A stretch of 64,000 nt of DNA. It comes from Cymodocea nodosa. Taxonomy: Eukaryota > Streptophyta > Magnoliopsida > Alismatales > Cymodoceaceae. This document shows positions 17,262 through 55,108 of this stretch, one piece after another. The translations under genes were made by a program, and so were the position numbers. The first letter of the stretch is position 1. The number at the start of each line of letters is the position of its first letter. The notes under the pieces are model-generated. The model did not search any database, was not told the DNA's origin, and saw only the letters and a list, made by a program, of their open reading frames with translations. The stretch covers positions 7,722,501 through 7,786,500 of the forward strand of contig CM072344.1 in NCBI GenBank assembly GCA_036874045.1, read 5' to 3'.

Positions 17262-19490
17262 ATGATGAAGATGACGCCTGAATTCTGGGAAGATGTTGTT
17301 GATACATCAGAATTTCTGAAAGAATCAGAAGAGTGGCACACACGGTAGAAGATCAAAAATACGACAAGAGAGAAAGAGCTACAGAAGGTAGAATCAGAAC
17401 TTTTCAAGTTGAGAAGAGATTTAGTAGATATGGAGATATGAATACCTCAAATGATGGAAACACGAATCAGAGTGGCAACTGAAATTGTAGTAAGTAAAGA
17501 AAGACAAATAAGGCCAAGTAACGAAGTTGCCCTAGAATTAATCCAACGTAAGTCCCGACTTTGGTTCAAAAGATGAATCTGTAGACAAGCTAAACGGGTG
17601 ATTTGGGAGCAAGAAAGGAAAGCAAATGAAGAGGCAACTAAAGAACGGGAGGAACCAACTGCTGAAAGACCTGTTCCTGAGGAGCAACAGTCTGGACCTT
17701 TAGTTCCACCATTTAGGCCATTGGCACAAGTAGAAATGATGGGGCCTTCAACTAAAGAAGAAATAAGAGAATTTGCAGAACTGGTTCAAGTTGGGAAGAA
17801 CCAAGGAGAATCAGAAGATTTGGTAGTGGCTAAAGCACACCTGGTGTTTGATGCACTGTATAAAAAGAGGGCTACAGAAAAGTTGAAAGCCCAATATAAA
17901 ATCAAAGTGGAATAACATCACGCAGCTATTGCTAGAACTGCTGCCAAATCTGCTGCAAAAGAAGTTGAAGCTGGTCGTTCGAGTCCAGTAATTATAGGAA
18001 AAGTTAAACAAGAAGAGCCAGTACCTGTGGCTCGAAGGCCTGAAGAGCCTATTTTTATAGATTTAATTTCAGAAGATGAAGAGGAAGAACAAACACAACT
18101 AATTAGAAAAAAGAAAGGAAAAGAAAAAGTGCCTGAATATGAGGAAATTAAATCTGAAGTACCAATTTTTACAGGGCTTGTGGAGCAGATTTTTATCAAC
18201 TTGCCATCCGAATCTAAGGAGGAGTAGGAGGAGCAAAGAAAAGAAGAAAATCAGGCTGAAATTAGTCTGCAGCCTGTACAAGAAGAAACAGAAATTAGGG
18301 CAGAAACTGAATTGCCCGTGACTCCATCCCAATCTGTTACAGAATCAGAAAGAACAGTAACAGAACAGATTGGTAGTCTGGAGGAAGAAGAAAGAGTAGA
18401 AAATGAAGAGGCTGAAAGAAGCCATTTGGACAAAAATAATTTCATAGATTCCACTGAAGAGCAAGAAACTCTTCAGCAAATTATGGAAAGAATTCAAGAC
18501 AGAGTGGAGAGTTCTGCCAGCTCACCACCACAAACAGAAGCAAAAGCAAAAAGTCAGGAATCTGAAGAGAATGTCCAAATGCAGCTTATGCTAGAGGAAG
18601 AGCAAGAGCAAACCCCTCTAGAGTAACAAAGTCACCTTCCTGACCCGACTGAAACAACAATTTTGAATGAAGTACATTTTTGTAGTCAGGAAGCTTATAT
18701 CAAATACCAAGAAATAAGGGGTTACGATATTATTTACAGTAGACCAGTAAATTGGGATGGAATGCAAGAAATCAAAGATCTATTTGAATTCCAAGGTCTA
18801 ATGCAATTTATATCTCAAGATAGAGGGCATGTAGTATATGAGAATTTAGTGCCCTGTTTCTATGCAAATTTAAGATAAAGAGAAGGAGAATTAATTTCAA
18901 ACGTGGAGGAAGCTGATGTACAGATAACACCAGAGCTTCTCCACAACATATTTGGTTTTAAGAATGAAGGAACAAAAATTTTGGAGGATACAACTGTAGT
19001 TGAATGGATTGAGCAGCAAATTAAGGATTGTTTAGCTATCAATCCTAGTGTGCCATGATTAAACAGATTGAAGCATTTAAATGGTAAAGCACACATGGTA
19101 GCTAACATTCTAATTAAGAATGTCTATCAATGACAGGGCCATGACATAGAATTAAGTTAATTTGTCAAATGGGCCACGTATGCAGTTGTAAATAAAATCC
19201 AAATAAATTGGTCTATAGTTTTTGTCTCCAAGCTGAAAACAGTGAAGAAGAAATTATTTTATGGAGATTTGATTCCATTGTTGATGGTGGACTGTGTCGA
19301 TTTCACTAGATGGACATCAAAAAAGATTAGATCAAGAACCATTTCAGTGAAAGAATACAGAAATTTTGTAGCTGCAGAACTAGCAGTACCTTCTAGAGGA
19401 ATTACAGGAGCTGTAGAGAGGATCAATCAATTAGAGCAGCAATTAGAAAAACTCCAGAAGGAAGTAGATGAACTTAGGCATAGAGATTAA
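17262..19490 (+). pseudogene. Accessory 'FEFQGL' ORF (element B), 743 codons with in-frame stops
   Basis: One continuous frame from ATG 17262 to 19490 with ten in-frame stops but no frameshift. In order: an N-terminal charged region (TTREKELQKVESELFKL), a Glu-rich central part with two IF(I/V)(D/N)L repeats (EEPIFIDLISE near 18050; VEQIFINLPSE near 18185), and a more conserved C-terminal third beginning with YQEIRGYDI and DLFEFQGLMQF, then CFYANL, NIFGFKNEGTKI, INQLEQQLEKLQKEVDEL. Homologues lie in elements H, D and E. Its position after integrase is that of the env-like ORF of Athila elements, but I see no signal peptide or clear membrane segment. The C-terminal third resembles the uncharacterised 'putative plant transposon protein' domain. 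Function unknown. Confidence 0.8.
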
Positions 19491-20257
19491 ATTGTATTGT
19501 TCGTCTACTTATGTAAAATTATATGAAATTGTATGATGTACTTGTATTGTAATTGATTCATATTAATGAATGTAAATTTTTCAGATACAATTTTCATACG
19601 TGTTTTGAATGTGAAATGAATGGAAATTATTGAATATTATGTTATTGTGAAACTTTATGAATGAATATGTAACTGATTTACAATTTGCTGAATGACAGGA
19701 TAACTGCTGAAAAATTTCTACATGTTATAAGGTAAAATGTAAATTCTGCATAACATAAAATGACCTGCAATTTAAATCTTTATATAATGTTCAGATTTAA
19801 ATGTATTTTAATCAAAATAAGGCATTAATAACATAGATTTAACTTTATTACAGTTAGTAGAATGACAAAGAAAAAAAAAACACAGAATAGAAAACTTACG
19901 AGAGTAAAACTTAGTTGTTGCTAAGTGTTAACTCAAAGAAGTAAGTCCGTTGAGTTAACCGTAACTCCACGAGGTCAGTAATATAATATAAGGTCACTCC
20001 GTTGAGTTATCTATAACTCAACGAAGTTAGTCCGTGGAGTTAGCAACAGTAACCGACTGTGTTCTGTTGAGTAATTTGTAACTCAACGAGGTTAGTTCGT
20101 GGATTAAGCAGAACAATTATTCTTTTAACCACAAACGAAACTTCGTCGGTTTAGTAGTTACCAAAATTTGAAATTAGTAGTGGTACACATACCCATTAAA
20201 ACAGGAACCACGATGCACGTTGCAAGACACGTTCTTGCAACGAGATTTATTCACTTT
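19491..20257 (+). repeat. Spacer between accessory ORF and gag, with three hairpins
   Basis: AT-rich with no gene in the first 420 bp. Three hairpins follow at 19947-19972, 19999-20023 (ccgttgagtta / taactcaacg) and 20064-20089, within about 145 bp. These match the units at the LTR end and the other spacers of element B. Confidence 0.75.
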
Positions 20258-20473
20258 ATGGACGCGCAGTATATATATGAAATAGAATGTTATTTACGAG
20301 TTACCAGCACTTTTAAGAGAAAGGAGAAAGCCTTGGAGGAACTGGAAGGAGAAGCAGCTGATTCAACCTTCATCCGACAACAAATATTTATAGAATGGAA
20401 AGCTTCAGACTGGTATGTAATTAATCTTCTGTTATTTATTTATGAGCACATGGACTCGTTCTCTAAGCACTAA
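20258..20473 (+). CDS. Small ORF of unknown function (element B)
   Basis: Seventy-one codons from ATG 20258, encoding a moderately charged peptide (KRKEKALEELEGEAADS). A possible splice donor (G|GTATGT at 20412/20413) and a possible acceptor (tttcattgcag, ending 20513) bracket a 101-bp stretch before gag, but splicing them would run into a stop. I do not recognise it. It could be leader sequence of the displaced gag. Confidence 0.3.
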   Translation: MDAQYIYEIECYLRVTSTFKRKEKALEELEGEAADSTFIRQQIFIEWKASDWYVINLLLFIYEHMDSFSKH

Positions 20474-20513
20474 ACGATTAGTAAGAACACCTATCTAGGA
20501 ATTTTCATTGCAG

Positions 20514-21785
20514 AGAAGTACTGAAAAATTTTCTGAACTAAACTTTAACGAAATTCTTTGGGGTGTAGCTAACCTTTCTTTAAAAGAGAACGTAGAGATG
20601 GCTGCTCCATTAGAAAAACCATTAGGAGAGATTCTATATCCTGAATTAATTGATGAACCTTCATGTATTCGATTGCCAAACGTTGAGGGAGATAGGTTTG
20701 AACTGAAATCTAATTATATTAGTCAATTGCCACATTTTCATGGATTAGAAAGAGAGGATGCCTATTATTTCCTTAGAGAATTTAACGAAGTTTGTCAAAT
20801 GATGAGAATGCCGAACATGAGTATAGATGCTATTAAACTTAGATATATCCCTTTTGCTTTAAAAGATACAGCTAAGAGATGGTTATATACTTTGTCGCCT
20901 GATTCAATTTCCACATGGACTAAATTTTGCTCTGTTTTTCTAGAAAAATACTATCCAACACATCAAACGATTAAAAAGAAGAAAGAAATATTAATGTGTA
21001 GCCAAAAATAGGGTGAATCATTCTGGAAATATTTTGAAAGATTTAAAGATTTACTGACTCAATGTTCACATCATGCAATGAGTAAAGCACAATTAATAGG
21101 TATAATTTATGAAGGCATAGATGTTTCAACAAAATCTTTATTAGAATCTACTTGTCAAAATGGATTTTTAAAATTATGTAGTGAAGAAGCATGGGCATAT
21201 TTAGAGAATTTTGCAAAAAGAACTGCATAGTGGGAAAATTTGGCTGAAGCTATTGCAGATAAAAGATTATTACCAAGAGGAATGCATGAAATAGATTCCA
21301 ATACTATGCTTGAGGTGAAATTAAATGAATTAACAAAGAAAATAGAAGAGTTATCATTAAATCAAAAGCTAGCAGAAAAGAATACAAACATAAATGACTT
21401 AGATATTATTTATGCTAGAAACCAGAGAGATAACTTGGGAAATTCTTATAATCCTAATTGGAGAAATCACCTGAATTTATCTCGGAGAAACAACAATTTT
21501 CAGGGAGGAAAAAATATAAATGAGAAGAACATAAGTTATGAAGTATTAATTGAACAAGGAGCTAGAATAGAGAAATTAGAAAAGACAATCCAACAAGTAA
21601 ACAATCGTCTAGAATTTATATTTGGAAATGCTGTAAATCAAAATCAGAATAGAAATATACCACTTAGACAGAAGGAACCAATGGAAGTTAGACCTACTAG
21701 AGGATTGCCAATACAAGCTATACCTAATCTTGTCAATAGAACGGTTAATGAAATTGATACCTCTTCTGGGAGGGCAACTGAATGA
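20514..21785 (+). pseudogene. Capsid half of gag, displaced to the 3' part of element B
   Basis: One frame with two TAG stops (21009 and 21228). The first ATG is at 20598. It contains the retrotransposon gag core: HFHGLEREDAYYFLREFNEV, LRYIPFALKDTAKRWLYTL, WTKFCSVFLEKYYP, ESFWKYFERFKDLLTQCSHH, then EAWAYLENFAKRTA. The C-terminal part has LTKKIEELSL and NPNWRNHLNLSRRN, both usual in Athila Gag. The zinc knuckle that normally sits between those two motifs is absent; it is at 12053-13033 instead. Both stops read as CAG to TAG. This is the only capsid-type domain of element B, and its place after pol and the accessory ORF is very unusual. Confidence 0.85.
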
Positions 21786-21979
21786 AGCAGCATATCTGAA
21801 GCAACTATCTATATGTATATATGTTTTTATTTTTATTTTAAGTTAATAGTATCGTAGAGTTAATTTTTAACTCAACGAACTTAGTCCGTTGAGTATGCCT
21901 TAACTCCACGAGGGTGTGTAGTAGTTATGTTAATTTTTGTCTTTGCTAAATTTTTGTTTTTATTTTACAGAATCGACAA
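21786..21979 (+). repeat. Spacer between gag and F-box ORF, with hairpins and acceptor-like site
   Basis: Two hairpins of the family lie at 21853-21877 and 21886-21910. A pyrimidine-rich tract ending in ttttattttacag (to 21970) is followed 9 bp later by the F-box ATG. This is a good splice-acceptor context; whether it is used is unknown. Confidence 0.65.
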
Positions 21980-23119
21980 ATGGAATTAATGCAATTACCG
22001 TTGGATGCACAAAGGGAAATACTAAGTAACTTGTCAACTAAAGATCTATGCAGGATGTGTTGTGTATCAAAGGAAATTAAAGACTGTATTGAAGAAAAAT
22101 ATTTTCAGGGACTACAAGCTGCAAAAATGACTAAGATTAGAGATGGATTCATATGGAGGTCATTTAATCGTAGTTCAAAGACCCATGAATATCTGGCTAT
22201 GGAAGAAACTACTGGAATTCCAACTAATGCATTAGAAGGAATGAGTCATATTATAGGGATAGATGAAGGATTAATCATATACAAGACGAGACCAAGGTAT
22301 GCAAGTTTATCATTACCTGAGATTTTGATAAGAAATCCTATAACAGGAGAAGAATGTAATATAGGAAGACCTAATATATTTGAAGCACCAACTGAAAATT
22401 GTGGGTCAGCTTTAATATTTTCTGATAAAAATTCTGCAATTCCTGAAAAATTATATTATTGGAGACCTACAGGAAATTGGGGTGAAGATTTACGCTTAAG
22501 TGTGTATAATTTTCTGAACATATCTTGGAATGAAAACATTATAATATATCTAGGACAGAAATCATTAATTAACCAAACACATGTCATAATTGATGGTTAT
22601 ATTTATTTAGTCACGGAGATATCAATAGCATATAGATCTGATTTATACATAGTGAGCATAGACAGTTATGATGATTATATAGAAATTTTACCTGTACCGA
22701 GTGAAATAGCTAAACCACCATCTGAAAAATTTAATAAAATTCAAATAGGAATTTGGTATAATGAAGAAGATGATCCTACTTTATGTCTGATAAGATGGTG
22801 GGATGAACTGATGAAATTTCAAATATAGATTATGGAAGACATGAATGAATGGAAGTAGGAAGAGGAATATATTGAAATAGATGTAGAAATAGAAACTGCT
22901 ACATTACCCTGGAACCAAAAAGGATCCCTTTCTGCATTACATATCATTAATGGTAATACACTCGTATTTGGAATTTATAATATATTGCATGTTTACAAAT
23001 TAAAAAGGACCAAAAACTGCATTAAAACAGAATTAATAGCAAGAATAACTATGCCTAAAAAGTTTGCTTGGACTGATACATTTATTCCATTTGTTTCTAC
23101 TTTTCAATCATGTTCTTAA
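21980..23119 (+). pseudogene. F-box protein ORF carried by element B
   Basis: From ATG 21980, 282 codons to the first TAG, then the same frame continues through a second TAG to 23119 (380 codons). Residues 5-45 form an F-box: LPLDAQREILSNLSTKDLCR followed by MCCVSKEIKDCIEEKY, matching the LPxD...EIL..L..K.L.R...VSK pattern. The remainder (IRNPITGEEC, YWRPTGNWGED) looks like an F-box-associated region. Plant F-box proteins recruit substrates to SCF ubiquitin ligases through SKP1. It lies between displaced gag and the polypurine tracts, inside the LTRs. It has no obvious intron, as expected for capture through RNA. The long largely open frame suggests recent capture or selection. A diverged retrotransposon-adapted F-box family is equally possible. 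Confidence 0.75.
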
Positions 23120-24877
23120 GCTGTGATTTTGTGTGTTTAATGTTGTGTATTCTGCATTTATTTTTAGAAAAGAAAAAAAATTTGAAGTTTTTCATGTTCA
23201 ATTTATAAAAAAAAAAAAACAAACAAACAAAACAAAATATCAATCCAGTTTGTTGGTATCTATTCTGGGAAACCAACTGGCTTGCTTGTGAGCCACCAAA
23301 GGCATAGAAGTCTGGGTTCCACACAAGACACTGATTTATAAATACCTGTTAAATGTTATTTTGTTTTATATTCTGGGATTATCTGGGAATGAAAAGTTTT
23401 TCAGAATCAAAAATCGGAATATGCAGAAAGAGATACAAATGGAACAAGGTATGTAACCAATTACTTATCCTGAATTTTAAATCAAACAAAACTTTATTCA
23501 TGCCTGCTACAATTACTGTACTTATTGTCAAATCTTTTACATTGAGGACAATGCAAAATGTAGGTATGGGGGGGAGGTAATTAAAGTAACAGCCATGTAA
23601 GTTTGTTAATTAAAGGAATTAAAATGGTACTGTAAAGTTTTGAGGAAATTGAAAATTTTTATGAACTTGCTGTAACTATCCGATAATTGAGACTGTAAAA
23701 TTTTTATAAACTGCTTGAATGTTATATTTAGAAGGCTATAGAAAATGCTATAGAATTTATTATTTATGTAAATCTAGATATAGTATCTTATGATTTTTCT
23801 GAATTTCATGAGTTTAACAGTTTCACGATTTTAAAATGAAATCAGAATATTTAATGCTTAATCAGAAAATTATCTGAAATCCTGGAGAAGTTGAGATGTG
23901 AATTCTAGATTAAATGAAACACATATGATGAAAGATACATTTACTTTGACTGATTGAACTTGTAGAATGATTTTTGTGTAGATCTTATTAAACTACAGAT
24001 AAAGTATGAACTTATTGTTATGGATTCATATCTTTAGTAAATGATAGAAGCAGGATTATATGAGATTGGTGTTTTATTACATCTGTATTAATGAAATACG
24101 TGCATATATAGTATGTGATTAATGCTTTGTTTTGTGTGTGCATTTATTTTTATAAAAACAAAAAAAAAATATTAAGAGTTTATTGACTTGTTTGATCACG
24201 AGCCTTTTGTACTTGAGCAGATAGGTATGTAAGGATTGTTGACCTAAAAAAGGACTCTGAAAATCTAGCAACCTATGATCTTAATCAGATCTAGGATTGT
24301 TGACTGAAAGCTCGTTACATGGGTACATTAGAAAGCTCTTGCATGATTCAAGCTTGTCAAATTAACTTTTAAAGTACAAAAAAAAAAAAAAACATATACT
24401 GTTTTGAAAAGATACAAGTGTTTTGTGAAATACAGATATCTTATGAATCGAGTATATTTTCTGTTATCTAGAATTGCTGAAATATGAATTTGGAATTGAC
24501 TTTTGAAGTTGTTTAATGGAAATACAATTCTTTATTCTACTTGTCTTAATCAAATTGAATTGGATTGTACTTTAATTTGTATGTTGTTGAAATTTCTTCT
24601 AGAAAAACTTATTGGAAAATTCAGGATTACAGATGATAAAAAGAAGAACAAACGATAATATAATTAACACCTATATGAAGATGATATACTTTGTATGTAA
24701 TTTACATATATTCTAAATATCTTTGCTGGTTGATTACTGAAACATACAGAATATATGTTTATGCTAAATAGAAGAAAACAAACAAAAGGGGGAGAATTAA
24801 TTCTAGTACTTTTTGAAAGACCAATTAATTAGATCTTAGTTTGCTAAGGGACTAGCAAAATTTAGGTATGGGGGAAG
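23120..24877 (+). other. 3' untranslated region of element B with two polypurine tracts
   Basis: No coding sequence. It contains A-rich runs and repeated aggattgttgac phrases (about 24232 and 24294). A first polypurine tract, ggtatgggggggagg at 23563-23577, follows ttgaggacaatgc, wording typical of Athila/Tat 3' regions. A second, ggtatgggggaag at 24865-24877, directly abuts the 3' LTR and is the likely primer for plus-strand synthesis. Another purine run, aaaagggggagaa, at about 24785 looks like the copia type. Confidence 0.7.
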
Positions 24878-26659
24878 TGTTTAGAATGAAAAAGTGCATA
24901 TTATTAACGGTTAAATGATGGTTAATTGCATAATATTTAGCTTATCATATGAGAATTAAGCCATTATGTTATAATTGCACTGTTATATGCTTTAATTGAA
25001 GAATCTGCTTAATTTTGGGGAATTAATGTTAATTTAGTACATTTATGAACTGTCGGTAAAATTACAGGCTGTGAAATTTTTAAGTATCCGAAAATGCATC
25101 TGAGCATCAGATAGTTATACCTGTAACTCTCCAAAATGTTATTTTATGTTTAAACTGCTACTAACACGTGTCGAGAGCTGGTAGATTTACTTAAGTTAGC
25201 ATAACTATACGCATTGAGTTACATGAATATACACTAAGGTAACGCGTTAGGTTAGCGGCTTATTTCTTTATTGCATGTATTTTATAGTTATTTTCCAAAA
25301 TGCCACTGTAGCGGTTGTAGGAACAGACAGTTGGAAGGAAAAACCACATTTGCATGTATCACGCAGGAATTCAATCGCGCATGGAGAAGGAAGCATCGCC
25401 GTTGATCTGAAGGAAGGAAATCCAACCGATCATTCAAGCAAAAGCAATTACTACTGAAGAAATATAAAAGAAAAGAAGAAAAAAAGAAGAAAGTGTGATC
25501 GATGGACGGCCAGTGTATACAGAGGAGGAGCATCGAGCTTTCTACAAACAGTATTGGCGATTCTCCGAAGTATCACACCAACCATCGTATCACCACCATA
25601 ATCACCAATCATCGGAGGTTTGTGAGGATACTTGCCTGATGTCGGGTCGATTCTGAGCCAAACACAGTGTCTGACAACCACTGTGAGGAGTGATCGTGTC
25701 GCGGGAAGGGAAGACATTTTCACCAAGTGCCGACTCATATTTCAGGAGATCGTAAAGCTTTTAGCCTTGGCTTCGAGTTGATGCCTGTATGTTGAAGAGG
25801 AGATCATCTTGCAATTCTGGACTTGCGATTCTATAGGGAGAGGAGACAGAATTGTAAGTGGTTCAATTTTCAGTAGTGTAATTGTGTTGCAAGTAGTGTT
25901 AGAAGTATTTATTGTCAAGTGAAATTACTTTACATCTCACCTTTCGCCCATCACATAAAAAAACAAAAATACCAAAAATAATTTATCTTCGTTTGTATGT
26001 TGTATTTGAGTATTGTATTGTTGGTGTTGTATCGTGATTAATGTTATCTATATCAGTTTTATGATTATTTTATGTTAGTTTTAATTTTACAGTTTATTGA
26101 AATTGGTTCGTACAAAACAACTTAAAGATTTTAATGGTTACTGTTTGAATCATCTGAATGTTATTATTACATAATGATAAATCCAATGTTAACTAGCATT
26201 AAAAAGCTTAATTGATGTTATTTACAATCTGTGGAATCGCCCAATGGTTGGCCAAATTCCTTTGTAATTAGCAGTATTATAAAGAAGAGACAGGCTCGTG
26301 GAGTTAACTTAAGTCCACGAGGATAGTCCGTTGAGTTATCCATAATTCAACGAACTTAGTCCGTTGAGTTAATTGTAACTCAACGGAGTGCTTATTGAAT
26401 ATAAATTTGAATTGTTTACAATCAAATATTTCTTAAATTCGTTAGCAATTTCCTGTGGGATCGACCTGTACTTGCACACTGATATAATAGACACTGTGCA
26501 CTTGCAGTTAAAGTACAAATTGGAATTAATATCTAAATTGTATTAAAGGTTGTTTGTTTACTTCTAAAAGAAAGAATAGGCATAAAGATAAATTAATTAA
26601 GTAAAAATAGAAGTAACAAATCCAAGTTTTTCTAATGTAGTGTTGGGAAACCACGAACA
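24878..26659 (+). repeat. 3' LTR of element B
   Basis: About 1.78 kb, TGTTTAG...CGAACA. It matches the 5' LTR closely, including the TATA box near 25460, the leader and the two end hairpins (26322-26381). It is slightly shorter through small deletions in U3. Confidence 0.85.
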
Positions 26660-26875
26660 CACTTGTAGTTAAAAATACAAATTGGACTTAATATCTAATT
26701 TGTGTAAATGTTGTTTGTTTATTTCTAAAAGAATTTATTAATATAAGCATAAAAATAAATCAAATAAGTTTTCCACACTCTAAAAAAGTTTTTTAGCACC
26801 GTTGCTGGGGAATCAATCAAGTTCTCTAGTGCCATTGAATAGACAAGTTTTTTATTTAACTTTTCACACTAAACA
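26660..26875 (+). repeat. Right end of the host gypsy LTR, with an internal PBS-like sequence
   Basis: Begins cacttgtagttaaaaatac, matching the tail of the other gypsy LTRs, and ends ctaaaca before the target duplication. It contains tagcaccgttgctggggaa (26794-26812), nearly a primer-binding site. An alignable but diverged version exists inside the 43008-45233 solo LTR, so it is LTR sequence here. Element B lacks this stretch inside its LTR. Confidence 0.6.
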
Positions 26876-26880
26876 ATGGC

Positions 26881-32595: not shown

Positions 32596-32862
32596 TATTA
32601 GGACTATTGTATTTTGATAATGCAAAAACCTGTGTGAGGAAACAAATTGTATTTCACAGATAAGACAGTTCAGCAAAAGATTAGAAGGCAGATAAGTTGA
32701 TACAGATAGTTTAGAAATTGCTATAAAATAAAAACAGGAAATTAGAAGGTTACTCGGCTTAAGTATCCGAAAGAAATGAATCTTCGATGAATTACAGGCT
32801 TAAGTATCTGAAGAGTCAGTTTAAAACAGTAGAAACACCGTTGGATGATTAAAAGAATAACT
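32596..32862 (+). repeat. Truncated copia LTR, left piece
   Basis: Begins TATTAGGACTATTGTATTTT, a mutated version of the TGTTAGGACTCTAGTATTTT start of the 30319 LTR, and follows the same sequence until interrupted by element C at the TAACT target duplication. The right piece resumes at 41532. Confidence 0.7.
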
Positions 32863-38640: not shown

Positions 38641-38651
38641 ACTGTTTATGT

Positions 38652-39726: not shown

Positions 39727-39739
39727 GCTTTGATACTAA
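39727..39739 (-). other. Primer-binding site of element C
   Basis: Minus-strand TTAGTATCAAAGC just inside the 5' LTR, close to TGGTATCAGAGC, the complement of initiator tRNA-Met used by most plant copia elements. Confidence 0.75.
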
Positions 39740-39740
39740 T

Positions 39741-45673: not shown

Positions 45674-45688
45674 ATCTCCCCCTTTTTG
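45674..45688 (-). other. Polypurine tract of element E
   Basis: Minus-strand tcaaaaagggggagat beside the LTR, the same form as in element C. A second copy (caaaaagggggagaag) lies at about 45728-45744. Confidence 0.7.
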
Positions 45689-45985
45689 ATGATGTCAAAA
45701 CTTAATAAGTCAAAAATAATCTATCTCTTCTCCCCCTTTTTGGCATTATAAAAAAGTAAATAAAATGTAAGGAAGAAAAAGATTCTAAGTACATATCATT
45801 CAAAAAGATATTTTTAAACATGCATAACTGTCATGGATTAAGCATAAACTGTTTAAATATAAACAGTGAAAAATAATCACATGAGTATTAAATGCAGTAA
45901 ACAGTTTACATAATATTTTTGGTAACAAATTTCAATACATAAATTATGTAATACATAATTTGTATAATCACAAGCCTCTTTGTCT

Positions 45986-48574
45986 TCAAAAAATACTGAT
46001 CAGAGTGTCTAAAATTTGCTTTGCAATTTCTGTACTTACTATGTTTATCTGATCAATTACTGCATGATCTAAATTATTTTGTGAAACTTGTGATGGTTGC
46101 TGTAAAAATTCAGTATGGATGTCTGTATGTATACCTGTATTTGTATCTATTTGTGTACCTGTATTTATATCTGTATGTATACTGGTATTGATATTTGTAT
46201 GTTACTATTGTTTTGAAAATTGTGTTGATTGTTGTTGTTGCTGTTGTGACTATGTTTGCCTATCCTGTTGTTGTCAGACTATAGGTGTATTTGTTGCCTG
46301 GTATTTTTGGAGTTCCTTTGCAGAGAAAGATCTTGATTTTAATCTTTTCTGTGACCAAGGTGTAATATCTATTTAACTTGCCACAATTCTCAAAATCATA
46401 TCACCATAAAATAATTTACTCTACAAATGTAATATATGAGAAATAAAAATATCATACCAGTTCACCTGTATATGGTTAATTAATGCATATGTAGCATAAA
46501 GACAACATCTGCCAACTTCTACACCATGACCAAACCTCTGAAACAATGAAGCATGTAGTAATTTTGCAATAAAACGTGCTTAGCCATTTAAATCATTTAG
46601 TAATCTCATTTGTTTGTTGGTAGTTGGATCTTTGGCTAAAGTTTGAATGCCCCATCCCAAATGATAAACCTATTTTCTTTCTGATAATTTAACTCCTTCA
46701 TTTTTCAGACCAAGTATTTGATAAAGTAAATTTGGAGTTAAATATATGTCATTTTCTTATATATTGGAAACAAGAATACCTTCTTCCACTATTAAGTTTG
46801 AATAACAACAACTAATGAGTTTTGGTATAACGAGATGGCCTGGCTATTGTGGAAGTAGAGTCAACAAGCCTTGAAATTCAAACATTTCTCGTATATGTGC
46901 CATCCCTTCAAACTTGACTAGTCTTGAATATAAATCTGTAAAAGTTTTATATGTTTGAAATTTGTCATAACATGAACTATTTTTGAACCATAATAATGTA
47001 TTTTCGTCTAAACTCTATTCAAGATTAGGTATTTTCCTGTCATGATATTTTGACCTGGGACTTGTTTCAACATTATCAGCAGCATCTATATTTTCAGATC
47101 TTTCAGAATTGGTGGAATTTCTATCAAAACTAGTATACATGTCTGAAATATTTGTTATTGTCGTATCAATAATCTACTAAAATTCTTCTGTTTGTTCTTC
47201 TGGAAACATGTCAGTAGCAACAATATCTGTATCAATCTGTCTATCAGCAACATGTATGTCTATAATTGATCTATACAACAACTGTCTCTGTATGAAAGAA
47301 TGTTGTATATCTGTTTGTATAATAGAATCATCCTGTATTTCTGAAATTTCTATTCTTGAGACATAGGTAGTGTGATATTCAATCTGTAACTGTGTATGTT
47401 GTTGATTATATACATTTATCAACAAGTATATTATATACTGTAACAGACATAACCATATGTATAAACTGTAGTATAAGCAACTATACCAAACATCAAAATT
47501 TGCTATCTAAGATACAATTAGAGGAAGAATATCTATACATTCCTCTTTAGATGAAATATCTTCAACATTCATAGACTCAATGTCTATATTATCAAAAATA
47601 TCATCAAAATTGATATCATCTGTATATGTATCATCAAAATTTCCTACATGTTCTCTTTCCGTAGAAAAAGAATGTGTGCTTGCAGCATGATGTGAAAAAT
47701 TGTCCATTGTATTAAAGGATACATTATGCACTAATGTGACACAATACTTTAGAGTGTATGCTTGTAATCCAATATTTGTCACATTGGTTGGGATTCCTGA
47801 CACAAATGTTTGTCCAGCTTCTACAATGGAACATAGTTTTCTATTTTTCAATGATTCTTCTTTTTGCTGCATTATACCTTTTACACCTGTAGTTAGTCCA
47901 AAATATTCTAATGTCTTTTTCTTTTTCTAACTATATGTCTGTAGTGTTTCTAGTTGTTCAGGAGGCTCTAAAATTTTCTTAATTTCTCCTGTTAAAGGCA
48001 CCTGTGGTCGTGATGGTCCTTCACCATGATGCCTAGGTGGTAATAATGGAATATAGAGTTTTAAGCTCTCCACCTCTGCCATTTTTAGTTGATAAACTCT
48101 TTGTCCTTCACTTCGAAGGCTCATTTTGCTAATGGCAATTTTCTGTTCATTTATATACTGTTGAATGTCATCTAAAACAGTCAAGGGAAAATAATGTTGA
48201 GAATACAATGTTTCTAATTCCCTATTTGTATTTTCTATCATTGGTCCCCATTTCTTTCTATAATAAGTGATAGACTGTACCAATTTTTCAGGTATCTATC
48301 TAGAACTTGTAACAACCACAGGGTTAGGTTGTAAAGTTCGTTTCCATAGTTGTAATGCGGAAAGTTCAGTCTATTTTAGTCAAAACTGTGTTTCAGCATA
48401 ATTGCGAATAAACTTCCAATAGAAATTTTTCTCATCTTGAACAGCTTTTCTAATTTCATGCAGTATTTCATTTGTAAAAGTGTACCTTGAATAGATGTCG
48501 TTGAATTCATTTTGCATTTTCTGAAGTTCCAACTCTCTTTTCTACACTTTTGTCATTCTACCACGTCCTGACAT
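45986..48574 (-). pseudogene. Accessory 'FEFQGL' ORF (element E), 863 codons with in-frame stops
   Basis: Start ATG at 48574 (MSGRGRMTKV) and stop at 45986; every recognisable segment is in the same frame. In order: a charged N-terminus with KRELELQKMQNEFND, GPMIENTNRELETLYSQHYF, a central acidic region (TDDINFDDIFDN), then the conserved part: MFEFQGLLTLLPQ, NLLYQILGLKNEGV, ARFIAKLLHASLFQRFGHG, CCLYATYALINHIQVNWYDI, SKLFYGDMI. It ends with a Gln-rich tract and a Thr/Ile repeat (HTDINTGTQIDT). Stops are mainly TAG. The conserved region aligns with element D (54250-55000) and, more distantly, B and H. Only this ORF remains between a copia-type LTR with polypurine tract and a truncated gypsy-like LTR. 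Function unknown. Confidence 0.82.
46105..46270 (-). repeat. Short-period repeat and Gln tract in accessory ORF E
   Basis: On the plus strand, variants of tgtatttgtatctgtatgtatacc recur with a period near 12/24 bp, encoding Thr-Asp-Ile-Asn-Thr-Gly-like repeats on the minus strand. Next to it is (gtt)n coding for Gln. The C-terminus of the element D homologue has a similar Gln tract. Confidence 0.6.
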
Positions 48575-48886
48575 TGTCGATTAAGCTTCGCTGTGCACTA
48601 TAGAATTTAGTGGAAGTAAAGATTATGAAACTAGGGTTTTACCAAGGTAGAAACATGAAAGGTTATTAGTAAAACATTTATAACTCTTCGAGTTTATAAA
48701 TGGATAAACGGATTCAATAATTGAAATCATAAATATAAGATCTGTTACTGGTAAATAACTCGAGTGCTTACAATAACTGTACGAGTTTTACAACCGACAA
48801 AAGCATACTGATATAAACATAACTGTTCGAGTTTCAATAAAGTCGAAGAGTTAAACATAACTGTTCGAGTTTCAATTAAGACATTA
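48575..48886 (-). repeat. LTR-like remnant upstream of accessory ORF E
   Basis: Contains three or more actcgaacagttatg / taactcttcgagt motifs and leads into the 57322-57715 gypsy LTR part once element D is removed. It represents a truncated LTR or leader. Confidence 0.5.
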
Positions 48887-49164
48887 TAAAGTGTTGAGTA
48901 ATTTTGTTTTGATGATGTATGCTAAATGGAAATAATCATATTTGCTCAATTACTATTGCTTGTGAAAAGAAATTAAAATCATCAATTAATACAGAAAAAG
49001 CTTACTGATATAAATACTTGTCTGTATTGGATTTGAAGTTAATAACTAGTTGTTTCATTGCATTAATTTCTCATTTAGCTAAACGTTAAGTCAACATGTG
49101 TTTTTATTGAAAAACATGATATGTTTTAAAGTTATATCTTCTGTATCATGAACAGTGCACATTT

Positions 49165-49785
49165 AGACAACTCGTTAAGTTAGAGTTTTATTTGTATAGA
49201 GGTTACGTGAGAACTCGTTAAGTTAGAGGCTTAAAGGTTAAAATAGGTCACGTGATAACTCGTTAAGTTAGTGAGTAAAAGAAGAGACGAACTCGTTAAG
49301 TTAGTGTTATACACGTGGTGAAATTATAAGTTACGAATGTTGTATTGTATCACGTGAGGTGCACATGTTTAACTCATTAAGTTAACATAACTAAACGCGT
49401 TGAGTTGCTATATTGAACATTAAGGCAACGCGTTAGGTTACTGTTATAAACTTAAGTTGTTATTTTTGCACGTGGTAAAATTCTTATTATAAAAATATTT
49501 GTTTATTATTGAATCGGTGAATTAGAGTTTTTTTTTTCCGAAGACTTACAGTCGTAACTATTCGAAAGGTAACTTAAGTCATGTTTTCAAGTCTTGACAT
49601 GTGTCTCACTGTTTTATAATATAAAGAGTTTTTCGGTGACTTACATCCATAACTATCTGAAACTTAAACTATTTTTGGTGAGTTATCATTTAACCTTCCG
49701 AAAGAAAGGTTAAGCTGGTTCGTTGAGTTAGCATAACACCACAGACATAGTTTGTTGAGTTATCTACAGTACTTGTCACGTGTAA
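49165..49785 (+). promoter_or_regulatory. G-box and GTTAAGTTA cluster in LTR D U3
   Basis: CACGTG occurs near 49251, 49312, 49352, 49468 and 49776, interspersed with AACTCGTTAAGTTAG units. G-boxes are sites for plant bZIP and bHLH factors. The arrangement is repeated in the 3' LTR (about 55832-56450). Stress or ABA response is inference only. Confidence 0.55.
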
Positions 49786-50104
49786 TGGCACATGTGGAAC
49801 TCGTTAAGTTAGAAATGTTAAATTATATATATATACTTGTGTTACTTGTTTAGTTAACATTAAAGTAACGACTTCTTATTACATGATGATGAAAATTTTT
49901 TGGACGAGAAAGTTTATTTTGCAGGAAAATTTTCAGAGATCCAAGACTGATGATTAAAGAAAATTCGAAATATAAACGTGTGTTAGAACGTGTGTTTCGA
50001 TGAAGGAAAAAGAAAAGACGTGGAGAAGTGGAAAACTGGTAGTGATTAAACATGAAGGATATGCATGAAAGAAGATACAATATAAAAGGCATAGAATTCT
50101 CATT

Positions 50105-50200
50105 GATCAAACCATACTTACACACAAAATGAAAAATCTTTTCAAGGATCAAACCATCCTTGCACACCAAAAGAAAAATCTTTTTCAGGGATCAAAAACA
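50105..50200 (+). repeat. Direct repeat of 42-43 bp in the LTR D leader
   Basis: Units begin gatcaaa at 50105, 50147 and 50190 and include gaaaaatctttt. The 3' LTR has the same repeat at about 56772-56865. It lies just downstream of the TATA box, hence in the transcribed leader. Confidence 0.75.
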
Positions 50201-50650
50201 CCTCTTTCGGGCAAAATCTCTCAAGTGGAAGAAAATTCAGTGAAGTAGAAAAGGTTAAATTTATGTCGTTGAAGATTTGAAGTATCAAGTGAAAGCAAAT
50301 TCGGTGAAGCAGAGAGAGACAAGATATTCATAACTGAAGAATTCCTGAAGAAGAAAGAAGAAGAAGAAGAAAGATCTCAAACAGGGAGAAATGTTTTAAA
50401 TTCTGCAAATTTGTTTTCTCTGTTTGTAGTTATGAAATTGTATAGATGAAACATGGTATCGAAATATAATTGCATCTACAATTCTTGAGGAGAATTGAAT
50501 TGTATATTGTAATTGAAACCTTGAATAAAAATGATTTTTTGAAAATAATATCTCGACTTGTTTTTGAGTTTTAAAGTTTCAATTATATTTCAGAAAATAT
50601 TAAAAATACAAAATTCACCCCCCTCTTGTGCAGCCATACGATCCTACAAG

Positions 50651-50662
50651 TGGTATTAGAGC
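50651..50662 (+). other. Primer-binding site of element D
   Basis: TGGTATTAGAGC, 2 bp after the LTR, one base from the TGGTATCAGAGC complement of initiator tRNA-Met. Confidence 0.85.
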
Positions 50663-50848
50663 TTTGTTAATAATCTTTGATATAAAATTTATACCAACTT
50701 ATTTAATATCATTGCTTATTCTACCTTCCTTGTTTTTAAATAGAAATTAATATCTGAGCATACGTTTAACTTTCTTGATTTAAGGCTCAAGTTGTTTTAA
50801 AGCTTTTAGACTGTTTAAAATCAAATAGGTTGAAAAATCTAAGGTAAG

Positions 50849-51793
50849 ATGGCTACTGGAAATGGTAATTTTTCTTTATATGAAGGCCAAAATCTTAATC
50901 GTCCTCCTTTATTTGATGGAATACATTTTGAATATTGGAAATATAGGATGACTGTTTTTCTTCAAAGTATAGATCATAAGTTGTGGTTCATGATTTCTAA
51001 ACCATATACTCCGTTAACTACTCCTTATAATACTTGGACAATTACTGAAAAAGAAAATGAAACTCTGAATGCTAAGGGCTTAAATATTTTATTTTGTGCA
51101 TTGAGTTATGAACAGTTCAGTAAAGTGTTGGCATATAAATCTGCTTATAAGGTGTGGCATGCATTAGAAGTTTCACATGAAGGTACTTCTCAAGTTAAAG
51201 AGACTAAAATAAACATGTTGATTCATAAGTATCAACTCTTTAAGATGCATGAAGACTAAAATGTTTCTGAGATGTTTTCCAGATTTTTTGATATCATAAA
51301 CTGTTTAAAATGTTTAGGAAAGAATTTTGAACAGAAGGATTTGGTGAGGAAAATTCTTAGATCCCTAAGTTCTAAATGGTCTCAGAAAGTAACATCAATT
51401 GAGGAATCACGAGATTTAAATGTTTATACCATGAATGAACTTATAGGAAATTTAACAGCTTATGAAGTTCAATTAAATGAATCACTGAGTCACAACAAAC
51501 TAAAAATGAAGAAAGAAATAGCCTTCAATATTAATTTAGATTCTGATATATCTAATGATTCTGACCAGGATTTGATTTTGCTGACTAGGAAATTCAAGAA
51601 AGCATGGAAAGCTAGGAAACAGCAAAGGAATAAAAATGATGAACCCTCAACGTCAAAATCACTAAATGACAAGAATTCTTCATCCAAAAAGTATGTATGT
51701 TACAACTGTAAGAAACCTGGACATCTTTCTCTAGATTGTCCTATGAGGAAAAATGAAAAGAAAAGTAGGACAAATAAGAAGAAGACGGCTTAG
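50849..51793 (+). pseudogene. Copia gag (element D)
   Basis: Start ATG 50849 (MATGNGNFSLYEG). UBN2-type core: RPPLFDGIHFEYWKYRM, GLNILFCALSYEQFSKV, VKETKINMLIHKYQLF, DLVRKILRSLSSKW, and a zinc knuckle CYNCKKPGHLSLDC (C-x2-C-x4-H-x4-C) near 51701-51742. The only interruption is one TAA at 51257 (Gln expected) before the TAG at 51791. The frame continues through the linker to 53107. Confidence 0.88.
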
Positions 51794-53107
51794 AAAACTC
51801 AGAAAAAGTTTTACAAGAAAAAGGCTTTGAAGGTCACTTGGGATGACACATCTAAAGAGTCTGAATCTGAGGAATCAACATCAAAATCTTCACATTCAGA
51901 AGGAAAACAAGAGTTAGAAGACGTTGCTCATGTGTGCTTCATGGTAGATGAGTCTGAGGTAATATCTGATCCTGAAAGTCATTCATATTTCAACTTTGAT
52001 GAATTATTATGTGTTTATCATGCGTTATTACAAAAACTTAAAATATGTAAAGTGGAAAATAAGAATATTAGAAAATCTTCATCCATTATGGAAGAAGAAA
52101 ATTGTTTCCTGTCTAATACTTTAGAAAAGTTTAAATGTGATAATGAAAATCATGCTAGAGATTTGCAAAACTTTAGATTTAATGAATGTATCTTGCACGA
52201 ACAAATATAGAATATAAATGCTGTAAAATTAAAGATAGAATCTGAAAATGAAATGTTGAGAAACAATATAAATGAACTTGAATTAGAGATAGATAAATTA
52301 AAACTCAAAGAGCAAGATTTAAATTCTACCATTGAGAAATGGAATTTATGTCAAACTAAGTTAGACAAACCAACTAGTACCCGTTCGGTGTCTTATAAAT
52401 TTGGCTTAGGATTTGATTATCCTGAATATCTTGAATCTCAAGCCAATAAAGGATTTATTAGTTGCAGTTCAAGTAAATCTAAGACTAAAATTCCTTTTAT
52501 CATGAAACAAGGTAATAAATATGTAGAAGTAGGTACATCAAGGGATGAATCATGTAGTAATAATATAAATCAATGTGATTTGTCAAATTGTACTTCTAAC
52601 ATGACTATAAATGTTTCTAAAAATCTTGTTTCTTGTTCTGAAAATTCAGTTTCTAATGTTTCTAAAATATCAGACAATTGTAGTAAACTGAAAATTCAGA
52701 AACCTGAGCATGTAATTCAATACATTGGTATTAGACCAATTACTCATTCTACATGTGATAAAACTAAAAATTCTTGTGCAGAAAAAGATTTTGTATGTAC
52801 GGAAAATGTTAATACAAGTACAAAATCTTGGTATGAACTTACTAAAATGTATGAGCATGACCAAAATAAATTAACATCTGATAAAAATCTGTTTGGTCTT
52901 GATTATACTACATCTGAAAACAAAAAGAATGATTGTAAAAGTAATAATGCTATATGTGAGTATGAAGTTAATGATAAATCAATAGTACTTACAACTAATA
53001 ACAATATAAATGATAATGTTAAACTATTTTTAAACAAAAAGAAGAAATATGCGTTTAATGAACTTGGTCCTAAACCACATTGGGTACCAAGAAAAAGATT
53101 TTCTTAA
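51794..53107 (+). pseudogene. Gag-pol linker with coiled coil (element D)
   Basis: Same frame as gag, with only two TAG stops (51791 and 52208). Ser/Glu-rich start (KESESEESTSKSSHSEG), coiled coil (ELELEIDKLKLKEQDL), then SYKFGLGFDYPEYLES and a long Asn/Ser/Cys-rich region, ending GPKPHWVPRKR. This corresponds to the 'YGLGYATP...IWVPK' linker of element C but is much longer. Role unknown. Confidence 0.75.
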
Positions 53108-53933
53108 TTTGTGTTGCAGGAGGAAACAACATCAAAATGGATCTTGGACAATGGAGCGTCAAGTCACATGACCGGACGGAAAAGTCTATTACAAAATTTT
53201 ACAAATACCATGAAAGGAAGTGTAACATTTGGAAACAAAACAAAGATAAAATCATAGGTATGGACAATGTTCAAATAACTCCTACTTGTGTTATTTCGAA
53301 TGTACTATATGTAGAAAACCTAGGATTTAATTTGCTGAGTGTCGTAAAAGATAAAGGTATATTTTTAAATCAGGAAAAATATGCAGATGAAATGCTTAAG
53401 AAATTTAATTTTAATGATACAAGGATTCGAGGAACTCCGATGAGTACTACTTTAAAGTTAGATATTGATGACATAGGAAAATCTATAGATCAAAGAAAAT
53501 ACAGAAGTATGATTGGTTCTTTACTTTATTTGACTGCTAATAAACCTGATATTATGTTTGCTGTGTGTATTTGTGCTAGATTTCATTCTAATCCTAAAGA
53601 ATCACACTTAATTACAGTTAAAAGAATATTTAGATATATACAAGGAACTAAAAATTTCGAACTGTATTATTCTAAGGATAGTTCAATAGATCTTATAGGA
53701 TATACTAATGCTGATTATGTAGGATCTAAATCTGATAAAAAGAGTACTAGTGGCACATGTCAATTATTGGGAAATAATTTGGTGTCATGGTTTAGTAAAA
53801 AGCAAAACTGTGTAGCACTTTCTACTACAGAAGCTGAATATGTTGCTGCTGCACTGTGTTGCACTCAGATTCTGTGGATAAGGCAAACTTTAGAAGATTT
53901 TGGATTATCTTATGATACAACTGAGATTTATCT
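53108..53933 (+). pseudogene. Protease fragment fused to RT/RNase H C-terminus (element D)
   Basis: Protease starts at 53135 (KWILDNGASSHMTGRKS) with Asp-Asn-Gly at the active site as in element C. A frameshift near 53250 leads to ENLGFNLLSV. The sequence then jumps directly to the RT C-terminal region (KGIFLNQEKYADEMLKKFNF) and RNase H (MIGSLLYLTANKPDIMF, TTEAEYVAAALCCTQILW). All integrase and the RT catalytic core are missing, an internal deletion of roughly 2 kb or more. RNase H itself stops after TTEIY at about 53930, where accessory ORF sequence takes over. Confidence 0.87.
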
Positions 53934-55108
53934 ATACAAAATGAGCAATTACAGATAGATACACCAGTTGTAGAATTTGTGGAAAAATTGAACTTTGAAC
54001 ATTCTATAGAGGCTGAATAGATGAATGTTGAGCATATTGACAATGTTCATAACACTGTTGAAGCAAAAGAATCAAGCTTACCTGAGTAGCTTTAAGATAA
54101 TATTTTGGAAGAGGAACAACGTGACATTCATTTTGAAGAAGAGGTTCCTGAAGACGAATTAAACTCTGAATCACAGCTTCAGGTATCACCTTCTTTGTAT
54201 ACAATATTAAAAATTCAAGGTAATGCAATTCATTTTAGATTCTAAGAAGCATTGTAGAAATACAATAATCTGATTACATGTTAGATTTTGCATGCTCGTC
54301 AAATAAAATTCAGAAATTTGATGGAAATAAGAGATTTGTTTGAGTTTCAAGGCCTCATTAAATTCTTGCCAGTAGGAACGAAATGGAAGCAATACACAGA
54401 GCTTATTGCAGCTTTTTATAGCAATCTGGTCAAGAATGGAAATTTTCTGAAAACTCCAATAAATGAATAGGAGTTTATATTGTCTCTTGAGTTAATTTTT
54501 GAAGTTTTAGGATTAAAGAATGAAGGTGTTGTTGTTACCAATAGATTTGACATGATAAGACAACTGGAATGGAACATTCAGTCTTTATCAAAAATTCCAG
54601 ATGTATATTCTAAAATGAGATTAATGGAAAATCAGAATGCATAGGCAAGGTTTATTGCAAATATATTGCATGCAAATTTATTTCAAAGAGTTGGACACAA
54701 TTTGGAAGTTAGTAGAAGCTGTTTATATGCAACTTATGGCCTGCTGAATAGAATTCAAATAAATTGGTTTGATGTTTTTATGTCTCAACTACAGCATATG
54801 AGTTCAAAGTTATTTATGGTGATGCTGTATATAGAATCCTTGCAAGCCAATTGACTTTATCTGACTGGCCCTCTGAAACTAAAGGCATGAGAGCATTTAG
54901 TGTCAAAGATTTGCAAAAATTCCAGGCCATGCATAATTCTCAACGACAACAACAACAACAACCTGATACAGACCATATACAACAACAACAACAAAGTTAT
55001 TCAGTTCAAGTAGAACAGCAAACCTAGCTACCTCCTGACTTAGATGTAGTGTTTAACGACATCAAAATGATATTAGGCATCTAGGAGATAAAATATGTAA
55101 TGTTATAA
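53934..55108 (+). pseudogene. Accessory 'FEFQGL' ORF (element D), 5'-truncated
   Basis: Begins in the middle of the accessory protein directly after truncated RNase H. Segments: EQLQIDTPVVEFVEKLNFEH, MNVEHIDNVHN (compare ESMNVEDI in E), IRDLFEFQGLIKFLP, LIAAFYSNLV, VLGLKNEGVVV, ARFIANILHANLFQRVGHN, CLYATYGLLNRIQINWFDVF, SKLF, then after one frameshift near 54812 FSVKDLQKFQAMH and a Gln tract. It ends at 55108. Several TAG/TAA stops occur. The sequence is closest to the E copy. The junction with RNase H suggests acquisition by recombination or a deletion that joined the two. Confidence 0.82.

What the first reader, a model, noticed from the sequence alone, without database searches (positions are those of the whole stretch)
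17262..55108. One accessory protein family in both Ty3/gypsy and Ty1/copia elements
A long ORF with shared landmarks (FEFQGL, F-Y-x-N-L, G-[FL]-K-N-E-G, I-[QN]-x-N-W, K-[KL]-[LF]-F-Y-G-D) is present at 17262-19490 in an Athila-type element, at 26881-28550 plus 7897-8338 in a gypsy-LTR-associated remnant, and at 45986-48574 and 53934-55108 beside copia LTRs and copia polypurine tracts. Four loci, two superfamilies. The resemblance is read directly from the translations. Exchange between superfamilies is inference; independent capture of one host gene or mis-joined elements are alternatives. The family role is unknown, and env-like function is not supported by any visible signal peptide.
Basis: partly seen in the sequence, partly recalled or inferred. 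Interest (0 to 1): 0.9.

Follow-up and report, generated by a model that had tools for sequence, protein, structure and literature searches.

The report
Accessory gene shared by two retrotransposons
In one plant genome, two anciently separate kinds of jumping gene (Athila-like Ty3/gypsy elements and Sirevirus-like Ty1/copia elements) carry related versions of the same extra gene in the place where retroviruses keep their envelope gene, which suggests that the gene moved between them and is probably not an envelope.

Summary
The four places share a ~235-residue domain (phmmer A against C 177.5 bits, against D 117.1; best shuffle 9.8), and they are not nesting artefacts. K2 (48892-57316) is a copia element with paired LTRs, a 5-bp TSD and an iMet-like PBS; the domain lies between its RNase H and 3' LTR. 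The 45986-48574 copy (minus strand) lies between pol and 3' LTR of a larger Sirevirus-type element, E. Of the loci read genome-wide (window copies of A and C included), 28 of 30 E-type copies end in the same Sirevirus LTR, 5 of 5 K2-type copies in the K2 LTR, and 29 of 30 Athila-type copies are followed by Athila gag and/or an F-box ORF; 3 of 3 extended ones have gypsy RT-RH-INT upstream. The tree separates an Athila from a Sirevirus clade. Diverged copies hit Pfam Transposase_32 below its cut-off. No transmembrane-like stretch was seen in the open Athila-type frames examined. Athila ORFs with this domain are known; a Sirevirus relative was not found in the papers searched. Function and direction of transfer are inferred. 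Side finding: this Athila family carries capsid gag and an F-box ORF 3' of pol.

The parts
10165..26659 (+). G1, Athila-like Ty3/gypsy element with LTRs about 10165-12006 and 24876-26659 (88.5% identical); PBS TGGTGCCGCTGCTGGGGA after the 5' LTR; PPT GGTATGGGGGAAG before the 3' LTR
13078..16754 (+). G1 pol: protease 13078, RT 14002, RNase H 14757, integrase 15525-16754 (gypsy order)
   Evidence: Pfam hits, (the protease hits are below Pfam's cut-off)
17262..19490 (+). accessory copy A: charged N-terminal arm, conserved domain about 18666-19367, C-terminal coiled-coil-like tail (my reading); 10 internal stops
20499..21782 (+). capsid-type gag frame (Retrotrans_gag, 2 internal stops) 3' of pol and of the accessory gene
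   Evidence: same order in 21 of 30 genomic loci
21950..23116 (+). F-box frame of the same element (2 internal stops)
   Evidence: PF00646; downstream of the accessory gene in 9 of 30 loci
26875..28550 (-). accessory copy B, N-terminal part and first half of the domain (frameshifted, Athila-type)
7878..8338 (-). accessory copy B, second half of the domain; separated from the rest by G1 and a lone Athila-type LTR 8339-10164
42249..64000 (-). E, Sirevirus-type Ty1/copia element; left (3') LTR 45673-42249 interrupted by an Athila-type LTR about 42998-45233; right (5') LTR outside the window (L009:991-2160)
60955..64000 (-). E pol: integrase 63998-63078, SH3-like domain, RT 62390-61497 (frameshifted), RNase H 61491-60955 (copia order)
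45986..48574 (-). accessory copy C, conserved domain about 47035-46295; in-frame stops
45672..45737 (-). Sirevirus PPT signature: two AGGGGGAG octamers, the last followed by AT and the LTR start TG
   Evidence: motif from PMC2829016
48892..57316 (+). K2, Ty1/copia (Sirevirus-type) element; LTRs 48892-50648 and 55559-57316 (93.7%), TSD TAAAG on both sides, PBS TGGTATTAGAGC; inserted inside E
50843..52207 (+). K2 gag (Retrotran_gag_2, CCHC), followed by a coiled-looking extension (my reading)
53626..53935 (+). K2 truncated RNase H; integrase and RT not found between gag and RNase H
53938..55024 (+). accessory copy D, conserved domain about 54246-54851, Q/N-rich tail; in-frame stops and a frameshift
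32862..41526 (-). K1, Sirevirus-type copia element without the accessory gene; four AGGGGGAG octamers before its 3' LTR

Best explanation
It is one retroelement accessory module: a domain of about 235 residues, a divergent relative of the plant 'Transposase_32' (PF20167) proteins. It sits in sense between pol and the 3' LTR, the place of the so-called env-like ORFs, in an Athila-like Ty3/gypsy family and in at least two Sirevirus-type Ty1/copia families of the same plant. SHOWN: homology; position and orientation in each type; stable association with each superfamily in the loci read; constraint on the domain. INFERRED: the domain passed between the two superfamilies once, long ago, by template switching or mispackaging when their RNAs met in one particle, and was then inherited within each lineage (a ~370-bp LTR block shared by K2 and some Athila-type LTRs is a second, weaker sign of exchange). 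INFERRED and least certain: the protein is not an envelope but a soluble factor that helps the element inside the cell. My best single guess is counteracting host silencing or guiding the element's RNA-protein particle, by analogy with plant mobile domain proteins. My split: shared module 0.95; one transfer between superfamilies rather than two captures 0.6; anti-silencing or particle-factor role 0.3. The overall figure is for the module plus transfer, with function left as a lead.
For: Homology with shuffle control. K2 bounded by LTRs and a TSD, with copia PBS. E bounded by LTRs, with the Sirevirus PPT/attachment signature. Athila type: 150 scored of 12127 candidates; of 30 loci read (the 30 best matches, window copy included), 29 followed by gag and/or F-box; 3 of 3 with gypsy RT-RH-INT upstream. 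C type: 150 scored of 12114; of 30 read (again the best, window copy included), 28 followed by the E-type LTR, 26 with the AGGGGGAG octamer, 17 with the exact AGGGGGAG-AT-TG junction; 2 of 2 with copia RT-RH upstream. D type: 150 scored of 11282; 5 of 5 read, all from outside the window, followed by the K2 LTR with the octamer just before it. Tree: Athila clade 97/94, Sirevirus clade (C plus D) 93/83. PF20167 gave 14 hits in the genome; by sequence and tree 11 are A-like and 2 are D-type (their surroundings were not read); in hmmscan one of each scored E 4.7e-9 and 4.4e-6. Domain mean dN/mean dS 0.26 (A, 30 copies) and 0.41 (C, 30 copies) against 0.61 for the A-type N-terminal arm (28 copies). 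Highest 19-residue hydropathy mean 1.21 among the six longest open Athila-type frames. K2 and Athila-type LTRs share a ~370-bp block at 72-73%, same orientation; the reversed K2 LTR matches none.
Against: Only one plant genome could be searched. The scored copies are the best 150 by similarity and the loci read are the top of those, so mixed arrangements could be missed and dN is biased low. The Sirevirus clade has moderate support (93/83), and the root rests on one very long branch (L075), which the tree program flags as unsure. No host or donor gene was found or excluded, so two captures from a common source are possible. The N-terminal arms of A and C show no similarity beyond short chance matches. 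2 of 30 C-type loci (L051, L059) lack the copia LTR and run into gypsy pol fragments; 4 of 30 C-type loci hold stretches of Athila-type LTR (nesting). L003, an Athila-PBS locus of another family, has a 105-bp D-type accessory piece at its edge (not followed up). The E-type LTR, of which 1170 bp were tested, does not share the K2/Athila block. The window copies of A, C and D give no PF20167 hit; the only Pfam hits were one weak unrelated family each for A (E 0.036) and C (E 0.29), and an intact 710-aa A-type frame gave none at E<=1. Nothing bears directly on the biochemical role.
Confidence: 0.62

Rival explanations
1. Independent capture: the Athila ancestor and the Sirevirus ancestor each took the domain from the same host gene or from a third mobile element, with no exchange between them.
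For: A diverged PF20167 member (L075, C7:15000938-15001411) stands next to an RVT_3 RNase H-like ORF and shows none of the four LTR types probed within about 1.4 kb downstream, so other carriers may exist. The domain alone is shared; the N-terminal arms are not. Plant mobile domains are thought to have been captured by MULEs from host genes twice (PMC5418596, passages).
Against: [quoted passage not shown] K2 and some Athila-type LTRs also share a block.
Confidence: 0.33
2. Nesting or mis-joining artefact: Athila fragments lie inside copia elements by chance.
For: The window is heavily nested; 2 of 30 C-type loci run into gypsy pol fragments and 4 of 30 hold Athila-type LTR stretches.
Against: 28 of 30 C-type and 5 of 5 D-type copies have the copia LTR at a near-constant distance; 2 of 2 C-type have copia RT-RH upstream in the same sense; C and D form their own clade.
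Confidence: 0.02
3. It is a true envelope gene of plant endogenous retroviruses in both superfamilies.
For: Position and sense match the env-like ORFs described for Athila-lineage elements and for Sireviruses (PMC7264820, part 1 of 3 read; PMC3414828, passages).
Against: No transmembrane-like stretch in the open Athila-type frames examined; relation to Transposase_32; highly charged arm. C and D types were not examined for hydropathy.
Confidence: 0.05
4. The protein is a gag- or capsid-related structural helper (particle assembly) rather than an anti-silencing factor.
For: In the Athila family it sits before a 3'-located capsid gag in 21 of 30 loci and carries a coiled-coil-like tail (my reading).
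Against: In K2 gag is in the usual 5' place and the accessory gene stands alone before the 3' LTR.
Confidence: 0.25

Closest known systems
Transposase_32 / 'putative plant transposon protein' (PF20167), reported in a sunflower Athila additional ORF (PMC11728184, passages)
   Same: Sense additional ORF of an Athila element; diverged copies of the A-like and D types hit the model with E 4.7e-9 and 4.4e-6.
   Different: Below the curated 45-bit cut-off; the window copies give no hit to it; here also in Ty1/copia.
Athila ORF-1 (PF03078), found in 16% of Athila elements (PMC6317226, section 13 read)
   Same: Accessory ORF domain of Athila elements; PMC11728184 calls PF20167 related to it.
   Different: PF03078 found nothing in this genome, but its controls were silent too, so this is weak evidence.
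Sirevirus eORF-3'F / env-like ORF (PMC6317226 section 13; PMC3414828 and PMC2829016 passages)
   Same: Position and sense match C and D, and PPT octamers cluster after the gene.
   Different: [quoted passage not shown] no link to Athila is stated in the parts read.
Plant mobile domain (PF10536) shared by gypsy elements, MULEs and host MAIN/MAIL1 (PMC5418596, passages)
   Same: A TE accessory domain shared between unrelated element classes.
   Different: No PF10536 hit for A, C or D.
Bdelloid rotifer ORF3 genes shared between LTR and Penelope-like elements (PMC5408684, abstract)
   Same: Same kind of pattern: one extra ORF type in very different retroelements.
   Different: Different genes (GDSL esterase, DEDDy exonuclease) and animals.

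Membership tests
Transposase_32 (PF20167) | score over the curated 45-bit cut-off | tested here: not met
   Window A, C, D domains: no hit to it. One A-like genomic copy 36.8 bits, one D-type 27.1 bits; the diverged L075 44.1 and 45 bits, marked over the cut-off.
Transposase_32 (PF20167) | recognisable homology to the family | tested here: met
   13 of the 14 PF20167 hits in the genome (E<=1e-3) are accessory-type by sequence, 11 A-like and 2 D-type; the A+C+D profile scores L075 at 69 bits against 9.6 for the best of 2000 shuffles. No C-type copy hit the model directly.
Athila ORF-1 (PF03078) | match to the PF03078 model | tested here: inconclusive
   0 matches in the genome, but nothing rang in the control genomes either; no hit in hmmscan.
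Sirevirus (elements E and K2) | copia order with gag, integrase, RT, RNase H | tested here: met
   E: integrase, RT, RNase H; its gag was not found in the flank read. K2: gag and RNase H, integrase and RT missing. Together they cover the set, neither alone.
Sirevirus (elements E and K2) | AGGGGGAG octamers before the 3' LTR, last one followed by AT/TG | tested here: met
   E: two octamers, exact AGGGGGAG-AT-TG junction. K2: terminal AGGAGGAG (one change) plus AGGGGGAG at 55319; 5 of 5 other K2-type copies have the exact octamer just before the LTR.
Sirevirus (elements E and K2) | place in an RT tree of plant copia lineages | not testable with these tools
   No plant reference RT set available.
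Athila (element G1) | gypsy pol order PR-RT-RH-INT and a sense ORF between pol and 3' LTR | tested here: met
Athila (element G1) | Athila-type PBS | tested here: met
   G1 PBS differs at 3 of 18 bases from a recalled pattern that has 298 exact matches in the genome; 7 of the first 8 such places adjoin a G1-type LTR. The PBS type itself is recalled.
Athila (element G1) | gag 5' of protease | tested here: not met
   Capsid gag lies 3' of the accessory gene; only a region with a weak zinc-knuckle match precedes protease.
Retroviral or env-like protein | transmembrane helix | tested here: not met
   Highest 19-residue hydropathy mean 1.21 among the six longest open Athila-type frames; only hydropathy was computed, and not for C or D.
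Retroviral or env-like protein | signal peptide | tested here: inconclusive
   The true protein start is not known; the open frame read may lack it.
Plant mobile domain (PF10536) | match to the PF10536 model | tested here: not met
   No hit in hmmscan of A, C, D; the one genome search for it did not complete.

The most novel reading that the evidence does not exclude
The so-called envelope-like genes of two plant endogenous retrovirus lineages, Athila (Ty3/gypsy) and Sirevirus (Ty1/copia), descend in part from one exchangeable non-envelope gene, which passed between the superfamilies together with LTR sequence, and which both use to counter the host inside the cell.
Probability: 0.3. Interest if true: 0.85.

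Novelty: new variant of a known kind. Interest (0 to 1): 0.68.

Why it matters
Extra ORFs in plant LTR elements are common, but those of Sireviruses are described as largely unrelated to each other and of unknown origin (PMC6317226, PMC3414828). A domain shared by Athila and Sirevirus elements gives a common thread, argues that this 'env-like' slot holds an exchangeable accessory factor, and makes the old question of its origin and role testable with intact copies and a sequence profile.

Tried and rejected
Nesting artefact: rejected. Envelope: no supporting feature in what was examined. A Pfam scan of the window copies gave no relevant family, which at first looked like an orphan; the PF20167 search of the genome changed that. 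The search of 5.8 billion proteins (46 candidates, none at E<=10), of solved structures and of viral contigs found no relative. PF03078: nothing. PF10536 (asked once) and a genome search with L075 did not complete. Five literature searches bore on a Sirevirus link; none of the listed papers, as far as title, abstract start or passages read show, states an Athila-Sirevirus accessory homology. Most subscription papers are not held. Two other literature searches were for the Pfam names and for Athila, F-box and gag order (no listed paper held the word Athila).

A first dN/dS run on C-type copies used 15 of 30 and was spoiled by length differences; it was repeated on an alignment of all 30. The probe called accC_dom was by mistake cut two bases out of frame; it served only as a position marker, and the C-type domain itself was taken from the coordinates.


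Full report
WHAT IS THERE. The window is a stretch of nested LTR elements in a genome of 374.6 Mb held as 28 contigs; by its elements it is a plant's. A self-comparison gives: G1, a Ty3/gypsy element (LTRs about 10165-12006 and 24876-26659, 88.5%); K1, a copia element on the minus strand (LTRs 32862-34683 and 39740-41526, 92.5%); K2, a copia element on the plus strand (LTRs 48892-50648 and 55559-57316, 93.7%); and several lone Athila-type LTRs. G1 has gypsy protease, RT, RNase H and integrase in that order. K2 has the target duplication TAAAG on both sides, an iMet-like PBS and a purine tract before the 3' LTR.

THE 45986-48574 COPY. It is on the minus strand. About 250 and 300 bp after its stop come two AGGGGGAG octamers, the second followed by AT and an LTR beginning TGTTAGG. 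Sequence fetched beyond the window shows the matching LTR on the other side, at L009:991-2160 (92.5% and 88.3% identical in two pieces), while the left LTR is interrupted by an Athila-type LTR. Copia integrase, RT and RNase H lie at 63998-60955 on the same strand. So C belongs to a larger element, E, into which K2 has inserted. The octamers and the AT/TG junction are the published Sirevirus signature (PMC2829016, passages). K1 carries the same signature, with four octamers, but has no accessory gene: about 400 bp separate its RNase H from the LTR, and no accessory probe matches there.

HOMOLOGY. The domain spans about 235 residues. A-C is 38%, C-D 44%, A-D 33% identical by BLASTP; phmmer scores of 177.5 and 117.1 bits compare with 9.8 for the best of 4000 shuffled targets. 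Mean identity over 61 rows (30 A, 30 C, window D) is 39% A-C, 34% A-D and 45% C-D. The N-terminal arms are not alike.

GENOME-WIDE TEST. Searches with A, C and D each found more than 11,000 first-look candidates, of which the tool scored the best 150; these are the best matches, not a random sample. Of 30 A-type loci read with 1.5 kb flanks (one of them the window copy), 21 are followed by the capsid gag ORF of G1 and 9 by its F-box ORF (L023 has both, L011 neither), and none by the octamer or a Sirevirus LTR. Three A-type loci extended upstream all have gypsy RT-RH-INT in the same sense. Of 30 C-type loci (one of them the window copy), 28 are followed by the E-type LTR about 560-680 bp after the domain, 26 have the octamer and 17 the exact junction; the two without the LTR (L051, L059) run into gypsy pol fragments, and four hold Athila-type LTR stretches, one of them the window copy. 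Two C-type loci extended upstream both have copia RT-RH in the same sense, about 2 kb before the accessory gene. Of 5 D-type loci read downstream, 5 reach the K2 LTR with the octamer just before it.

FAMILY. The window copies match no relevant Pfam family. But Pfam PF20167 (Transposase_32) finds 14 places in the genome: by sequence 11 are A-like, 2 are D-type, and one (L075) is more diverged and reaches 45 bits. Their surroundings were not read, except 1.4 kb after L075. Three of the 14 were given to a full Pfam scan; all hit PF20167, and the A-like one also a weak unrelated family. The accessory profile scores L075 at 69 bits; the best of 2000 shuffles reached 9.6. I therefore call it a divergent relative, not a member by the curated cut-off. 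PF20167 has been reported in a sunflower Athila additional ORF (PMC11728184, passages).

TREE. With L075 as outgroup, A-type and A-like rows form one clade (97/94) and C plus D another (93/83). 28 rows were used: 6 of 30 A-type loci, 7 of 30 C-type loci, D from the window and all 14 PF20167 hits. The program flags L075 as a very long branch, so the root is unsure.

CONSTRAINT. Mean dN over mean dS in the domain is 0.26 for 30 A-type and 0.41 for 30 C-type copies, against 0.61 for the A-type N-terminal arm (28 copies), 0.49 for the 3' gag (21) and 0.78 for the F-box ORF (9) in the same loci. The copies were chosen by domain similarity, which lowers the domain's value. TAG is the commonest stop in C-type domains (60 TAG, 13 TAA, 9 TGA) and less markedly in A-type (14, 10, 7), as expected if methylated CAG decays to TAG; that is an inference.

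LTR BLOCK. K2 LTRs and Athila-type LTRs share a block of up to about 370 bp (72-73%) in the same orientation, best with the 28586-30300 LTR and shorter (64-180 bp) with the others, a shorter inverted match, and a repeated AACTCGTTAAGTTAG motif (6 in each K2 LTR; 4, 2 and 1 in three Athila-type LTRs; none in E, K1 or the 42998 LTR). The reversed K2 LTR matches nothing. K1 shares only 29-98 bp with the 42998 LTR. This may be exchange, or a shared insertion.

HOW IT MIGHT WORK. The longest open A-type frame (710 aa) has no transmembrane-like stretch, is strongly charged (100 K/R, 136 D/E) and ends in a coiled-coil-like tail (the coiled coil is my reading). C and D end in Q/N-rich tails. That does not look like an envelope, though the true start and the C and D types were not examined. 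The nearest parallel is the plant mobile domain, shared by gypsy elements, MULEs and host silencing proteins, for which its authors speculate on an anti-silencing use by MULEs (PMC5418596, passages). I take an intracellular role, anti-silencing or particle-related, as likeliest, but nothing here tests it.

NOVELTY. [quoted passage not shown] Searches showed no paper linking the Athila and Sirevirus ORFs. Sharing of extra ORFs between retroelement classes is known in rotifers (PMC5408684, abstract). Hence 'new variant of a known kind'.

Noticed in passing
window 12007-24875; L010-L039; L002, L004, L006, L007, L008: The Athila-type family carries its capsid gag ORF (20499-21782) downstream of pol and of the accessory gene (21 of 30 loci), while protease starts about 1.1 kb after the PBS with only a region holding a weak zinc-knuckle match before it (5 of the 8 PBS loci read, out of 298 PBS matches). 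To my knowledge a split and moved gag is very unusual for a Ty3/gypsy element.
   Followed up: partly
window 21950-23116; [quoted passage not shown] possibly a captured host gene, with weak constraint (dN/dS 0.78, 9 copies).
   Followed up: partly
window 48892-50648 and 55559-57316 against 8339-10164, 28586-30300 and 10165-12006: LTRs of the copia element K2 and of Athila-type elements share a block of up to ~370 bp and a repeated AACTCGTTAAGTTAG motif.
   Followed up: partly
L075 with L094, C7:14999500-15001500 minus strand: A diverged, open PF20167 domain is followed directly by an RVT_3 RNase H-like ORF, with none of the four LTR types probed within about 1.4 kb downstream: perhaps a third carrier of the domain.
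   Followed up: partly
C1:9573931-10690357, D-type hits: Seven D-type copies with the same features (298-aa open frame, one TAG; scores 382.0 or 380.8 bits) are listed in one orientation within about 1.1 Mb of contig C1, five of them about 120-150 kb apart; perhaps a large tandem repeat or an assembly feature.
   Followed up: no
L003:2914-3018: A short D-type accessory piece (91%) lies at the edge of an Athila-PBS locus whose protease is of another family (44%).
   Followed up: no
window 2410-5477: Decayed copia gag and integrase remnant on the plus strand.
   Followed up: no
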